A model generated the notes under the pieces. It ran no database searches, was not told where the DNA came from, and saw only the letters and a program-made list of their open reading frames with translations. Source: Candidatus Poribacteria bacterium (GTDB lineage: Bacteria; Abyssobacteria; SURF-5). From it: a stretch of 5,373 bases of DNA. Where the stretch lies: positions 1 through 5,373 of the forward strand of contig JACRIR010000020.1 in assembly GCA_016215705.1 (NCBI GenBank), read 5' to 3'. The position numbers and the translations under genes are program-made. Shown in pieces: positions 1 through 3,867 of this stretch. Every line of letters begins with the position of its first letter. Positions within the stretch are counted from its first letter, which is position 1.

Positions 1-881
1 CAGCGGTGAAGGCCGCTGAGGCGCGGCTGGCGAACGCAAAGGCGGCGCTGAAGCAGGCTGATATTGATTTCGGCAGGGCGGAGGATTTATGCAAGGAGGG
101 TATTGCGCCGAAGGAGATATTGGATAAGGCGCAGACGGGGCATGAGGCGGCGGAGGCGGGTGTGAGGATGGCGACGGAGGAGTTGAGACGGGCGAGGGCC
201 GCATTGGGAGAAGGCGAAAGGCGAAATCCCGCGAGGCGCGGGACTTCCCCCGCCGAGGCGGGGTCAGGGCGCAAAGCAAAGGGCGAAGGGGAAATCGAAG
301 AAGTCCAAGGTCCAAAGTTCAAGGTTCAAAGTCAGGAAAAGGCAAAAACGGAAGAGATGGATTCCCGCTCCCCGATCGGAGTCGAGGACAGACTTCGAGG
401 GAATGACAGCAACGGGGTTCATCCGCTGATAATGAAGAGGCAAGCGGAGTTGGATCGGGCGAGGTTGAATCTGAGTTATACGGAGATTTATGCGCCGGTG
501 AAGGGCAATGTTACGCGGAAGACGGTCGAGGTCGGGAACAATATTGATGCCGGCTTTCCGCCGCTGATGATGATTGTCCCGCTCGAGGGTCTCACTATCA
601 CTGCGAATTACAAAGAGACTCAGCTTAAGAGGGTTAAGGTGGGGCAGCCAGTGGAGATCGAGGTGGATACGTATCCGGGCGTGAAGCTGAAGGGGCGGGT
701 GGAGAGTATTATGGCGGGGACGGGCGCGGTCTTCTCGCTGTTTCCGCCGGAGAACGCGACGGGGAATTTCGTGAAGGTGGTTCAGAGGATACCGGTGAAG
801 ATAGTGTTGGAGGAGAGGGCGAATCCGGATGTGCTGAGGGTGGGTATGTCGGTGACACCGACGATAGATACCACGAGGTAG
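1..881 (+). CDS. emrA: EmrA/HlyD-family periplasmic adaptor of a multidrug efflux pump (5' end outside window)
   Basis: This is the membrane fusion subunit that links an inner-membrane MFS exporter to an outer-membrane channel. The frame is open from the window edge, with the first whole codon at 3, so the GTG at 6 is probably not the start; the N-terminal membrane anchor and first lipoyl half lie upstream. Numbering from that GTG, residues 1-68 are an Ala/Glu/Arg-rich coiled-coil arm and about 141-160 are the returning helix. The second lipoyl half (SYTEIYAPVKGNV) and the beta-barrel follow. The C-terminal GAVFSLFPPENATGNFVKVV stretch is characteristic of the EmrA branch. Residues about 69-139 do not look like EmrA and consist of translated repeats placed at the arm tip. 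emrB follows downstream, separated by a GxxExxY cassette. Family assignment is confident; the substrate is unknown. Confidence 0.93.
   Translation, partial: AVKAAEARLANAKAALKQADIDFGRAEDLCKEGIAPKEILDKAQTGHEAAEAGVRMATEELRRARAALGEGERRNPARRGTSPAEAGSGRKAKGEGEIEEVQGPKFKVQSQEKAKTEEMDSRSPIGVEDRLRGNDSNGVHPLIMKRQAELDRARLNLSYTEIYAPVKGNVTRKTVEVGNNIDAGFPPLMMIVPLEGLTITANYKETQLKRVKVGQPVEIEVDTYPGVKLKGRVESIMAGTGAVFSLFPPENATGNFVKVVQRIPVKIVLEERANPDVLRVGMSVTPTIDTTR
225..267 (+). repeat. Two-hairpin palindromic repeat, copy 1 (inside emrA)
   Basis: A 43-base unit forms two adjacent hairpins: TCCCGCG / CGCGGGA with loop AGG (227-243), and CCCCGC / GCGGGG with loop CGAG (248-263). The inverted copy at 3014-3056 matches at 39 of 43 positions. 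All four differences lie in the loops or the spacer. It looks like a REP-type dispersed element; mobility is inferred from there being two copies in unrelated contexts. Confidence 0.85.
304..333 (+). repeat. Heptamer tandem repeat TYCAARG
   Basis: Four consecutive 7-base units read TCCAAGG, TCCAAAG, TTCAAGG, TTCAAAG, followed by TC. The period is not a multiple of three, so it gives no protein repeat. The same family occurs inverted at 3120-3145. Here it encodes the GPKFKVQSQ part of the insertion in the adaptor. Confidence 0.75.
361..404 (+). repeat. Short repeat with inverted ends ATTCCC...GGGAAT (inside emrA)
   Basis: The unit starts ATTCCCGCT and ends CGAGGGAAT, preceded by GATGG and followed by GACAGC. 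It resembles the common dispersed palindrome of the form GGATTCCCGC...GCGGGAATGAC, here with a longer interior. A related hairpin, GGATTTCCGC with GCGGGAATTAC, occurs at 3846-3870. Only the 6-base ends pair well, so this is a weaker call than the 225-267 element. Confidence 0.55.
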
Positions 882-924: not shown

Positions 925-937
925 AAAGGAACATATG
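925..937 (+). promoter_or_regulatory. Ribosome binding site and ATG that lead into the wrong frame
   Basis: AAAGGA at 925-930 lies four bases before ATG 935, the best initiation signal upstream of the nuclease-like gene. From this ATG the frame reads MEQPMNADWNWIESLKA and stops at 986-988. With one extra 10-base unit, as in the right repeat, it would read through MNADKRRLELDRI into the nuclease frame. The signal therefore fits an ancestral start now displaced by a contraction. Confidence 0.6.
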
Positions 938-961
938 GAACAGCCGATGAACGCCGATTGG
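936..961 (+). repeat. Left inverted repeat of the cassette, two 10-base units
   Basis: TGGAACA is followed by GCCGATGAAC and GCCGATTGG. Against the right repeat read inward (1365 to 1330) it aligns over all 26 bases with one mismatch, but it lacks one internal unit, GCCGATAAAC. It overlaps an ATG at 935 and an in-frame ATG at 947, which would be the natural translation starts of the cassette gene. Confidence 0.8.
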
Positions 962-1326
962 AATTGGATAGAATCACTAAAAGCATAATTGGCTGTGCCT
1001 ACAAGGTGAGCAATACGCTTGGGGCGGGTTTTGTGGAAAAGGTGTATGAAAATGCCCTTGTTTTGGAACTGCAGAAGGCAGGTCTTAAGTCCGATCAGCA
1101 ATATCCGATTCGGGTGAAATATGATGGCGTAATTGTGGGCGAGTTCACTGCTGACCTGCTGGTAGAACAGGACGTAATCGTTGAATTGAAAGCCGTGAAA
1201 GCTTTTGATGACGTGCATACAGCTCAATGCATGAACTATCTGAGAGCAACAGGACTTCCGGTGTGTCTGCTAATAAATTTCGGTAAACCCAAGGCCGAGG
1301 TAAGACGTATTGTGCAAGATTTCTAA
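958..1326 (+). CDS. GxxExxY-family protein, PDDEXK nuclease-like (start uncertain)
   Basis: The protein (122 residues from TTG 958) matches the GxxExxY family (PDDEXK_3-like): LDRITKSIIGCAYKVSNTLG, then the name-giving motif GFVEKVY at residues 24-30. A nuclease-type core follows, with Asp66 in ADLLVE, Glu76-x-Lys78 in VELKA, and Gln90 in TAQCMNYL. The end, LLINFGKPKAEVRRIV, is also family-typical. These are the residues expected of a PDDEXK fold, but no biochemical role is established to my knowledge. TTG 958 is the first possible start in frame and has no ribosome binding site of its own. The well-placed ATG codons at 935 and 947 are out of frame because of a 10-base contraction in the left repeat. 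The gene may thus be poorly translated or off, although its body is intact. It is the sole gene of the cassette interrupting emrAB. Confidence 0.85.
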   Translation: MELDRITKSIIGCAYKVSNTLGAGFVEKVYENALVLELQKAGLKSDQQYPIRVKYDGVIVGEFTADLLVEQDVIVELKAVKAFDDVHTAQCMNYLRATGLPVCLLINFGKPKAEVRRIVQDF

Positions 1327-1329
1327 TTC

Positions 1330-1365
1330 CCAATCGGCGTTTATCGGCGTTCATCGGCGGTTCCA
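1330..1365 (-). repeat. Right inverted repeat of the cassette, three 10-base units
   Basis: Read inward on the minus strand it is TGGAACC, GCCGATGAAC, GCCGATAAAC, GCCGATTGG. It starts three bases after the nuclease stop codon. On the minus strand it encodes MNADKRRL in an open frame, the start-like peptide the left repeat has lost. It matches the left repeat except for the extra middle unit and one base. Confidence 0.85.
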
Positions 1366-1379
1366 ATCATTGTCTTAGT

Positions 1380-2990
1380 ATGGACGACAGAGTCTACGTA
1401 AATAAGTGGTTGATTGCGGCGACGGTGATGATTCCGACGATCATGGAGATCGTGGATACGAGCGTCGCGAATGTCGCGCTCGACCACATACGCGGGAGCC
1501 TGAGCGCGGGCGTCGATGAGGTGACGTGGGTGCTCACGTCGTACCTCGTGTCGAACGCGATTATCATCCCGATCACCGGCTGGCTCGCACGCACGTTCGG
1601 GCGCAAGCGCTACCTTATGTTCAGCATCATGCTCTTTACGATCAGCTCGTTCATGTGCGGAAGCGCGCCGAACCTGGGAACGCTGGTGTTCTTCCGCGTA
1701 TTGCAGGGGATCGGCGGAGGCGCGTTGCAGCCGATGTCGCAAGCGATACTGTTCGAGTCGTTCCCGCCGAGGCAGCATGGGGTCGCGATGGCCGTGTTCG
1801 GCGTGGGAGTCATGTTTGGGCCGATCGTGGGACCGTTCCTTGGCGGCTGGCTGACCGACAACCTGAACTGGCGCTGGATATTCTATGTCAATATTCCGAT
1901 TGGCGTGGTCGCGCTGATAATGGCGTATTCTTTCATTTATGACCCATCGTATCTCAGAAGGAAGGGGAAAGGAGCACAGCCCCAAGGCGAAAGGGGCAAG
2001 GCGATAGGAGAAATCCAAGAAGAAGAAAAAGAAAGAATAGATTACTGGGGGCTGGCGCTGCTTGTGACGTGGGTCGGCTGCCTGCAGATCGTGCTCGACA
2101 ACGGCCACCGGAAAGACTGGTTCAATTCTCATTTCATCGTGATTCTGTCGGCGATATCGGTCGCGGCGTTTGCTTTCTTTATAGTTGTCGAGTTGACGAC
2201 GCCGAGTCCGGTCGTGAATCTGCGAACGTTCAAGAACCGGTCATTCACGGGCGGAAACATCATGATGTTCGTCGCGTTTTTCTGTTTCTTCGGAAGCATT
2301 GTGCTGCTTCCGCTCTACCTGCAATTGCTGATGGGCTACACCGCGACGCTCGCCGGCATGGCGCTTTCGCCGGGTGGGATCGCGAGTCTCATCTCGATGG
2401 CAATCATGGGGCGGCTTATCGGGAAATTTGATCCGCGATTCATTCTGGCATTCGGGATCTCGCTCACGTGCTATTCGTTCTACATGATGACGCAATTCAA
2501 TCTTGCCTCCAACTACCAATTTGTGCTGATGCCACGCGTAATACAGGGACTCGGGATCGGATGCTTGTTCGTGCCGCTGACGACTCTCACGGTGTCGCAT
2601 ATTCCGAAGCAGGAGATGGGAAACGCAACCGGCATTTTCAATCTTTTGCGCAACCTCGGCGGCAGCTTCGGGGTCGCATTCTCTGCGACGATGCTGGCGC
2701 GTCATACGCAGATAAATCAAAACCATTTGGTTGAGCACTTAGCGCCGACGGGAATCAGTTTTCAGCAGGCTTTTCAGTCGCTGAAGCTGGCGCTGCCGCG
2801 GATGGGAGTCATCCCGGCGCTGCAAGATGACGCGGCTCTCGGCGTCATCTATAGAGAGTTGCAGCGGCAGGCATTGATGCTGTCGTTCAATGACTCGTTC
2901 AGGTATCTATTCATGATCTTCTTCCTGACGGTTCCTTTTCTGTTTCTGCTGAAAAGGCCGCAGTTCGGTGAGGCGGTGGCCGTACATTAA
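1380..2990 (+). CDS. emrB: EmrB/QacA-type (DHA2) drug:proton antiporter, 14 transmembrane helices
   Basis: This inner-membrane MFS exporter uses the proton gradient to drive drugs or toxic hydrophobic compounds through the EmrA adaptor. At 536 residues it is close to the usual DHA2 length of about 510-530. Residues 7-34 (VNKWLIAATVMIPTIMEIVD) form helix 1 with the conserved Asp26. GWLARTFGRKRYL (67-79) is MFS motif A, and residues 138-155 with GGWLTDNLNWRWIFYVNIPIG (155-175) are the DHA2 motif C region and its typical sequel. About 14 hydrophobic segments can be traced to FMIFFLTVPFLFLLKRP at the C-terminus. ATG 1380 gives the expected N-terminus but has no clear ribosome binding site, perhaps because the cassette ends 13 bases upstream. 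The central loop has a charged purine-encoded insertion (about 194-219). Pairing with emrA is clear; substrate unknown. Confidence 0.95.
   Translation: MDDRVYVNKWLIAATVMIPTIMEIVDTSVANVALDHIRGSLSAGVDEVTWVLTSYLVSNAIIIPITGWLARTFGRKRYLMFSIMLFTISSFMCGSAPNLGTLVFFRVLQGIGGGALQPMSQAILFESFPPRQHGVAMAVFGVGVMFGPIVGPFLGGWLTDNLNWRWIFYVNIPIGVVALIMAYSFIYDPSYLRRKGKGAQPQGERGKAIGEIQEEEKERIDYWGLALLVTWVGCLQIVLDNGHRKDWFNSHFIVILSAISVAAFAFFIVVELTTPSPVVNLRTFKNRSFTGGNIMMFVAFFCFFGSIVLLPLYLQLLMGYTATLAGMALSPGGIASLISMAIMGRLIGKFDPRFILAFGISLTCYSFYMMTQFNLASNYQFVLMPRVIQGLGIGCLFVPLTTLTVSHIPKQEMGNATGIFNLLRNLGGSFGVAFSATMLARHTQINQNHLVEHLAPTGISFQQAFQSLKLALPRMGVIPALQDDAALGVIYRELQRQALMLSFNDSFRYLFMIFFLTVPFLFLLKRPQFGEAVAVH
1960..2036 (+). 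repeat. Purine-rich repeat insertion in the emrB central loop
   Basis: Between DPSYLRR and IDYWGL, which I recall as nearly adjacent in related EmrB proteins, lie about 25 extra codons of Lys, Glu, Gly and Gln. The DNA resembles the tracts in the emrA insertion and at 3294-3350: GGCGAAAGGGGCAAGGCG, then GAAATCCAAGAAG compared with GAAATCGAAGAAG at 291-303. It falls in the cytoplasmic loop between helices 6 and 7, where extra length is tolerated. Boundaries are approximate. Confidence 0.55.
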
Positions 2991-3013
2991 GGAGTAAGCG
3001 TTCATCCGCATGG

Positions 3014-3056
3014 CTGACCCCGCCCCAGCGGGGAAAGTCCCGCGCTTCGCGGGATT
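3014..3056 (-). repeat. Two-hairpin palindromic repeat, copy 2 (inverted, after emrB)
   Basis: This is the inverted partner of 225-267, with 39 of 43 bases identical. Both stems are unchanged and all four differences are in loops or the spacer. Lying 23 bases after the emrB stop, the hairpins could slow RNA decay or weakly end transcription. No U-tract follows on the + strand, so I do not call an intrinsic terminator. Confidence 0.85.
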
Positions 3057-3119
3057 CCCCTTGCTCCTGCTTTGTTCAATCCAGAATCCAAGATCACTCG
3101 ACCCTAAACCCTGAATCCC

Positions 3120-3145
3120 GAACTTTGAAAGTTGAACCTTGAACC
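3120..3145 (-). repeat. Heptamer repeat, inverted relative to the copy in emrA
   Basis: On the minus strand the units read TTCAAGG, TTCAACT, TTCAAAG, TTC, the same 7-base family as 304-333. The flank at 3106-3127 (AAACCCTGAA...GAACTTTG) recurs in shortened form at 3911-3928, just ahead of the Lrp-type gene. Confidence 0.65.
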
Positions 3146-3240
3146 GACAAGGGCGTGAGGTGTGTCCACAGCGCGGCGGAGCCGCAACCAAAAGAAGAAG
3201 AAACCAAGAGAGAGAAAAAACTCTGGGAACACGAATGTCA

Positions 3241-3257
3241 TCCCGCGAAACGCGGGA
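3241..3257. repeat. Third copy of the TCCCGCG hairpin
   Basis: TCCCGCG, AAA, CGCGGGA has exactly the same 7-bp stem as the first hairpin of the two-hairpin element (227-243 and 3038-3054), with a third loop version, AAA. The second hairpin of the unit is absent here. Confidence 0.7.
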
Positions 3258-3270
3258 CGCAAGGCGCGAG

Positions 3271-3395
3271 ACGAATTACACGAATAAGAATTCTTGGGGG
3301 GGAAAAGGGGAAAAGGCGAAAAGGACGGGGAATAAGCGAAGAAGAAAAACAAATTGGAACACGAATTCCGCGAATTATGCGAATTCCACGAATGA
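3271..3395. repeat. Nonamer repeats of the ACGAATTNN type with purine-rich tract between
   Basis: Two 9-base units (ACGAATTAC, ACGAATAAG at 3271-3288) and four more (CACGAATTC, CGCGAATTA, TGCGAATTC, CACGAATGA at 3360-3395) flank a G/A-rich tract. The 9-base period creates long open but repetitive frames on both strands, with runs of Ile-Arg-Gly type on the minus strand; these are not proteins. The unit is too short and lacks spacers, so it is not a CRISPR array. Confidence 0.7.
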
Positions 3396-3646
3396 TCTGA
3401 GGCTTCGGGAGAAACGGGGAAAAGGCGAAGCGGCAGCGAGCGAGAAATAAGAGAGAAACAAGGCGGGAATCCGTTGAAGAACACCTGGTTGCAAGGGAAT
3501 GGTCTTGAAAACCACGACGCAAATTCAAGAAATCAACAGTGAGCACTACAGCTTGACGCGGCCCCCTATTGTGTCATTGATATTGCTCTAAATCATCAAT
3601 TATTGAGCTAGAAATTACTGTTTTGCGCATGATTGTTATATTATTC

Positions 3647-3754: not shown

Positions 3755-3867
3755 GGGCCTGATGGCCCCCATAATTCGGGGACATGATGCCGCATCGTGT
3801 CCCCGAATTAAGGGAAACGGTCGCCGGTTTCCCGGCAGGTGAAATGGATTTCCGCTTTCGCGGGAAT
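3755..3867 (+). other. Hairpin-rich leader ahead of the Lrp-type gene
   Basis: Four hairpins are seen: GGGCC / GGCCC with loop TGAT (3755-3768); an 18-bp stem (3772-3789 with 3793-3810); GGGAAAC / GTTTCCC with an inner GG / CC pair and one bulge (3812-3833); and ATTTCCGC / GCGGGAAT with loop TTTC and one G-T pair (3848-3867). I do not recognise a known riboswitch. The last hairpin is REP-like, so at least part of the leader is repeat-derived. Confidence 0.6.
3772..3810. repeat. 18-bp near-perfect palindrome with GGGGACA / TGTCCCC core
   Basis: The arms TAATTCGGGGACATGATG and CATCGTGTCCCCGAATTA pair at all 18 positions except one T-G, around a CCG loop. A loose copy of the core, GGGGGACAC, lies at 3689-3697. 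Palindromes with this core are ones I associate with REP elements and Y1 (RAYT/IS200-like) transposase ends, but no transposase gene is in the window. Confidence 0.7.

What the first reader, a model, noticed from the sequence alone, without database searches (positions are those of the whole stretch)
210..422. About 70 codons of palindromic repeats carried in frame inside emrA
Three kinds of dispersed repeat (two-hairpin, heptamer, inverted-end palindrome) are stacked in one coding region, with no stop and with the frame kept on both sides. They lie at the tip of the adaptor's coiled-coil arm. That tip normally contacts the outer-membrane channel, so the insertion may change or abolish docking. 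Translated palindromes in proteins are known from Rickettsia (RPE elements); I see no sequence relation to those.
Basis: partly seen in the sequence, partly recalled or inferred. Interest (0 to 1): 0.75.

Follow-up and report, generated by a model that had tools for sequence, protein, structure and literature searches.

The report
Repeat-derived insert inside EmrA protein
A short pile of this bacterium's scattered DNA repeats has landed inside a drug-pump adaptor gene without breaking its reading frame, adding a floppy loop of about 65 amino acids at a natural gap in one helix; this is a real but fairly ordinary case of a known phenomenon.

Summary
Window 210-419 (70 codons, EmrA residues 70-139) is an in-frame insert of dispersed repeats: GGCGAAA heptamers, a two-hairpin element (225-267), a TYCAARG heptamer array (302-332) and an inverted-end palindrome (357-408). 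Copies of each occur across the genome. The only two other genomes held for the phylum have EmrA with 5-7 residues there. One claim is wrong: the insert is not at the tip of the coiled-coil arm. AlphaFold models put the tip at residues 31-37, next to an RLS-like motif. The insert sits in a natural break of the return helix, about 32 residues from the tip, and is predicted to be disordered. The flanks show purifying selection and no acceleration, so a tolerated loop is the best reading. It is not unique here: neighbouring EmrB (21 aa) and a TMEM260-like protein (24 and 25 aa) also carry in-frame repeat inserts absent from relatives. Even so, about 90% of repeat stacks in a 0.94 Mb sample avoid genes. 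In-frame intragenic REP/RPE inserts, some encoding 43-82 aa, are already described in other bacteria. New are the repeat families, the candidate phylum and the mixed stack. Membership in the RPE or GTAG/CGTC REP families is not supported.

The parts
3..881 (+). emrA (membrane-fusion adaptor), 5' end cut by the contig edge
   Evidence: Pfam HlyD_D23, HlyD_3 and CusB_dom_1; best solved relative E. coli EmrA 8zar/8zal, E=6e-63
75..113 (+). true tip of the coiled-coil hairpin with the RLS-like motif (residues 25-37)
   Evidence: AlphaFold helices 2-31 and 37-74; G001 EmrA helices 91-147 and 153-184; R25 and L29 at least 90% conserved
210..419 (+). in-frame insert, residues 70-139, in a natural break of the second arm helix
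   Evidence: absent in G001 (7 aa) and G002 (5 aa); pLDDT below 50 over most of residues 85-134
206..226 (+). GGCGAAA heptamer pair; the left homology ends at about 209
   Evidence: family D3; the same heptamers lie 5' of element A at C42 and C27
225..247 (+). element A, first hairpin (CCCGCG/CGCGGG)
   Evidence: 23 copies in the 0.94 Mb sample by nhmmer; exact core at about 35 places genome-wide
248..267 (+). element A, second hairpin (CCCCGCC/GGCGGGG) plus TCAG
   Evidence: follows the first hairpin in 9 of 23 sampled copies; others have a short GGAAGCC tract; reverse copy at 3014-3056
268..296 (+). end of TCAGGGCGC plus degenerate GGCGAAA heptamers, closing a recurrent heptamer-A-heptamer composite
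   Evidence: TCAGGGCGCAA also follows element A at C75 and C27
302..332 (+). TYCAARG heptamer array, four degenerate units
   Evidence: period-7 scan; similar arrays next to GGCGAAA heptamers at C265 and C29
357..408 (+). element C, inverted-end palindrome (ATTCCC 361-366 / GGGAAT 399-404)
   Evidence: 23 copies in the sample by nhmmer; also present in G001
1962..2024 (+). second in-frame repeat-like insert (21 aa) in emrB, loop between TM6 and TM7 (boundaries approximate)
   Evidence: absent from G001 EmrB, whose flanks are 88% and 73% identical; GGCGAAA-like heptamers 1984-2013

Best explanation
A stack of this genome's normally extragenic short repeats was copied into emrA, at a non-helical break of the second arm helix. 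It survived because three conditions were met: the length kept the frame, the T-poor strand has no stop in the frame used, and the site tolerates a disordered loop. The adaptor probably keeps its tip, lipoyl and beta domains and its function, with a 63-65 residue flexible loop bulging from the arm. Shown: the insert, its repeat origin, its absence in relatives, frame conservation, and the same outcome in other genes of this genome. Inferred: expression, retained function, a single copying event rather than stepwise arrival, and the copying mechanism (replication slippage, template switching or ectopic recombination, or mobilisation by an unidentified transposase).
For: Relatives lack it: 7 and 5 aa against 70. 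Repeat copies are genome-wide. Intergenic regions show similar stacks, with heptamer-A-heptamer at C42, C27 and C75. The insert is 11% T, with 2 of 3 forward frames and 0 of 3 reverse frames open; extragenic element A copies have 79% open frames in this orientation against 52% in reverse. The host break is non-helical and confidently predicted in G001, and the insert is predicted disordered. The flanks are not accelerated: lineage-unique changes 17 against 15 and 22; deviations at conserved columns 2 against 3 and 2; third codon positions diverge 3-4 times as much as second positions. Parallel inserts occur in EmrB and twice in a TMEM260-like protein.
Against: Near-identical copies elsewhere suggest the insertion is recent, so selection on the flanks says little about function after it. 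The gene's 5' end is missing from the contig. No reads, transcripts or peptides were available. No transposase was tied to these elements: the three Y1_Tnp genes in G000 are not flanked by A or C.
Confidence: 0.8

Rival explanations
1. The insert disables or impairs EmrA, and the gene is at the start of decay.
For: A 63-65 residue insert in the arm of an oligomeric adaptor could block packing; the conserved Q of the GQxL turn is changed, with one extra residue there.
Against: No stop or frameshift in the insert, in emrA or in neighbouring emrB; no excess of changes at conserved columns; the site is a natural break.
Confidence: 0.12
2. The insert changes EmrA function adaptively, for example docking, partner choice or regulation.
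For: EmrB beside it also carries a private insert, and the insert is charged and large.
Against: The docking tip is unchanged. Similar inserts sit in an unrelated TMEM260-like protein, which argues for indiscriminate arrival. There is no sign of structure in the insert.
Confidence: 0.06
3. Assembly artefact: a misjoin or wrong copy number at a repeat in a short-contig draft genome.
For: Repeats often lie at contig ends in this assembly, for example C15 and C27; the contig is only 5.4 kb.
Against: Both flanks are halves of one gene, in frame, and it is the genome's only close EmrA match. Independent in-frame inserts occur in other contigs.
Confidence: 0.04

Closest known systems
Intragenic GTAG/CGTC REP elements (PMC3733652)
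   Same: small dispersed palindromes, mostly extragenic, sometimes clustered in frame inside ORFs; clusters encode 43-82 aa in Thauera and Rickettsia conorii, and loops or linkers are suggested as tolerant sites
   Different: no GTAG or CGTC end tag here; the stack mixes palindromes with two heptamer families; no RAYT found next to copies
Rickettsia palindromic elements (RPE; reviewed in PMC10969869)
   Same: palindromic repeats translated in frame inside unrelated genes
   Different: RPEs are about 150 bp and nearly half of the R. conorii copies are intragenic; here units are 43-52 nt and about 90% of stacks avoid genes; no shared peptide family shown
Tandem heptanucleotide repeats, as in Geobacter metallireducens (PMC2700814), Xanthomonas/Nostoc (PMC4692102) and cyanobacterial STRRs
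   Same: degenerate 7-nt tandem units dispersed mainly between genes and sometimes within genes
   Different: unit sequences differ (GGCGAAA, TYCAARG, TTCATGG, TTTGGAT); no common origin shown
E. coli EmrA (8zar, 8zal) and Aquifex EmrA (4tko)
   Same: same adaptor fold; E. coli EmrA has a short non-heptad stretch at the same place
   Different: no repeat-derived insert

Membership tests
EmrA/HlyD membrane-fusion adaptor | HlyD/CusB domains and EmrA signature (ANYKETQL, PPENATGNFVKVVQR) | tested here: met
   Foldseek top hit for the G001 orthologue is 8zar, E=3.5e-32
Rickettsia palindromic elements (RPE) | in-frame position inside protein-coding genes | tested here: met
   emrA, emrB and a TMEM260-like gene against relatives
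Rickettsia palindromic elements (RPE) | element of about 150 bp, with nearly half of copies intragenic | tested here: not met
   A is 43 nt and C is 52 nt; 9 of 99 stacks lie mostly in called ORFs, and 3 are internal with coding signal on both sides
Rickettsia palindromic elements (RPE) | sequence relation to an RPE family | not tested
   no RPE sequences were fetched for comparison
GTAG/CGTC REP superfamilies | GTAG or CGTC tag at one end of the palindrome | tested here: not met
   read directly in A (225-267) and C (357-408) and their copies
GTAG/CGTC REP superfamilies | short, dispersed, mostly extragenic palindromes | tested here: met
REP elements mobilised by RAYT | copies flanking a Y1_Tnp (RAYT) gene | tested here: not met
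   3 Y1_Tnp genes in G000, none with A or C in the fetched flanks; flanks are cut by contig ends in two of the three loci
STRR-like heptamer repeats | degenerate tandem 7-nt units, dispersed and over-represented | tested here: met
   44 period-7 arrays against 2-13 for other periods; units listed
STRR-like heptamer repeats | unit sequences of the known STRR families | not tested
   no STRR library was compared

The most novel reading that the evidence does not exclude
In this candidate phylum (three genomes held), unrelated short repeats (heptamer arrays and palindromes) travel together as composites and repeatedly enter genes at loops. They act as a continuing source of new disordered protein segments, outside the RPE and GTAG/CGTC families.
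Probability: 0.3. Interest if true: 0.55.

Novelty: new member of a known kind. Interest (0 to 1): 0.36.

Why it matters
It gives a clean before-and-after case of extragenic repeats becoming protein: empty sites in relatives, recognisable source families, a mapped structural position, and parallel cases in the same genome. It extends a phenomenon known from Rickettsia and some REP-rich bacteria to a poorly sampled candidate phylum and to mixed stacks that include heptamer arrays. It does not overturn an existing view.

Tried and rejected
Tip insertion and lost docking: rejected from two structure models. Structured RNA: no Rfam match, and folding energy equals that of shuffled sequence (z=-0.06). 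RAYT-driven spread: no A or C copies beside the Y1_Tnp genes of G000. N-terminal repeat peptide in a 393-aa ORF at C185: probably upstream extragenic sequence read into the ORF, because a later ATG fits. A single ancient composite unit for the whole insert: C75 has A and C in the same order and similar spacing but a different middle, so not supported as one unit. A wider phylum search returned only the same three genomes.

Full report
What was checked. The window is the complete contig C47 (5373 nt) of an unnamed 5.47 Mb draft genome with 270 contigs. The ORF at 3-881 is an EmrA-type membrane-fusion adaptor whose 5' end is cut by the contig edge (Pfam HlyD_D23, HlyD_3 and CusB_dom_1; E. coli EmrA is the best solved relative, E=6e-63). 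The frame runs without a stop through 210-419.

The insert is real. The two other genomes held for this phylum (both same family, other genera) each have one close EmrA. Between the conserved ALG and HPL, the window has 70 residues, G001 has 7 (DVPDGAT) and G002 has 5 (SVEGM). Flanks are 60-63% identical on the left and 77-82% on the right. At the DNA level the left homology ends near 209 and the right resumes at about 411-420. Distant homologues have between 0 and 82 residues in the aligned region, where the arm length varies, so length here is naturally flexible.

The insert is made of dispersed repeats. Searching the whole genome with 205-430 gave 42 matches. The best separate ones were a 96% identical 52-nt copy of the palindrome (E=1.6e-17) and a 100% identical 43-nt copy of the two-hairpin element (E=2.3e-15). 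In a 0.94 Mb sample, profile searches found 23 copies of each. Period-7 tandem arrays numbered 44 (42 after masked stretches are removed), against 2-13 for other periods, in several unit families. Element A is preceded by GGCGAAA-like heptamers in 8 of 23 copies (3% expected) and followed by GGCGAAA or TCAGGGCGCAA in 9 of 23 (6% expected), under a loose match of up to two mismatches, so the 5' part of the emrA insert is a recurrent composite. The rest resembles ordinary intergenic stacks, including the one downstream in the same window (2990-3480).

Where it sits in the protein. An AlphaFold model of the window protein gives helices 2-31, 37-74 and 139-158, with residues 85-134 almost all below pLDDT 50. 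A confident model of the G001 orthologue (mean pLDDT 90) gives one arm helix 91-147, a turn, then 153-184, a break at 185-193 and 194-211. Its best structural match is E. coli EmrA in the EmrAB-TolC pump. The outer tip is therefore the turn near window residues 31-37, with R25 and L29 conserved in at least 90% of relatives. The RLS-type docking motif of AcrA-like adaptors is established knowledge; here P36 stands where most relatives have S. The insert fills the second-helix break, about 32 residues from the tip.

Is the gene still constrained? Lineage-unique amino-acid changes are 17 in the window, 15 in G001 and 22 in G002. Deviations at 56 conserved columns are 2, 3 and 2. Third-position divergence is 0.46-0.57 against 0.13-0.15 at second positions. 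This is purifying selection without acceleration. Because the repeats are nearly identical to copies elsewhere, the insertion may be recent, and this test mostly reports on the time before it.

Why the frame survived. The insert strand is 11% T. Two of its three forward frames are open and no reverse frame is. A random arrival in this orientation therefore had roughly a one-in-five chance of keeping the gene open (1/3 for length times 2/3 for stops); this is an inference from those counts, not a measured rate.

Not an isolated case. In the adjacent emrB, 21 residues between TM6 and TM7 are absent from G001, with flanks 88% and 73% identical. A TMEM260-like protein (C148:76-2709) carries two private inserts (24 and about 25 aa) built on ATCCAAA heptamers, both absent from both relatives. 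An MFS transporter at C246:50739-51986 has a heptamer-encoded stretch in the middle of the protein, but no close orthologue was found for comparison. Overall the repeats avoid genes: 9 of 99 stacks lie mostly in called ORFs although about 75% of the sample is coding.

Comparison with what is known. In-frame palindromic repeats are known from Rickettsia (RPE; PMC10969869). They are also known as GTAG/CGTC REPs in many species, with clusters encoding 43-82 aa and the suggestion that loops and linkers tolerate them (PMC3733652). Heptanucleotide arrays within genes are reported in Geobacter metallireducens (PMC2700814). The present elements lack the GTAG/CGTC tag, are shorter and more extragenic than RPEs, and have no RAYT gene beside them in the loci examined. 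They behave like intragenic REPs but are not shown to belong to those families.

Verdict. A confirmed, well-resolved example of a known kind of event, with new repeat families in a little-known phylum. The suggested functional effect on docking is not supported.

Noticed in passing
window 936-1365: A GxxExxY-type PD-(D/E)XK ORF (958-1326) between emrA and emrB lies between inverted 23-nt repeats (936-958 / 1343-1365). A 78% identical copy with the same 23-nt repeat lies upstream of emrA in G001 in the opposite orientation, so it may be a mobile cassette.
   Followed up: partly
L209 (C148) 522-556 and 755-785: Two ATCCAAA heptamer inserts in one TMEM260-like gene share the motif FDGIQ(N/T)PKSK, which suggests a common source element with a fixed 5' context.
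   Followed up: partly
window 3768-3814: Near-perfect palindrome with GGGGACAT/GTGTCCCC arms, similar to the ATTATGTCCCCGGAAT inverted ends beside the duplicated Y1_Tnp genes on C28.
   Followed up: no
window 2990-3480: Dense intergenic stack: reverse element A (3014-3056), a half copy (3240-3258), heptamers and CGAATTACACGAAT-type repeats.
   Followed up: no
L214 (C225) 1-1060: Y1_Tnp gene bounded by inverted GGGGTCAGGTCTTGAA-like ends; element A also ends in GGGGTCAG, a possible but untested link.
   Followed up: no
window 547-562: EmrA has GFPPL where relatives have GQPL: one extra residue and loss of the conserved Q in the lipoyl-domain turn.
   Followed up: no
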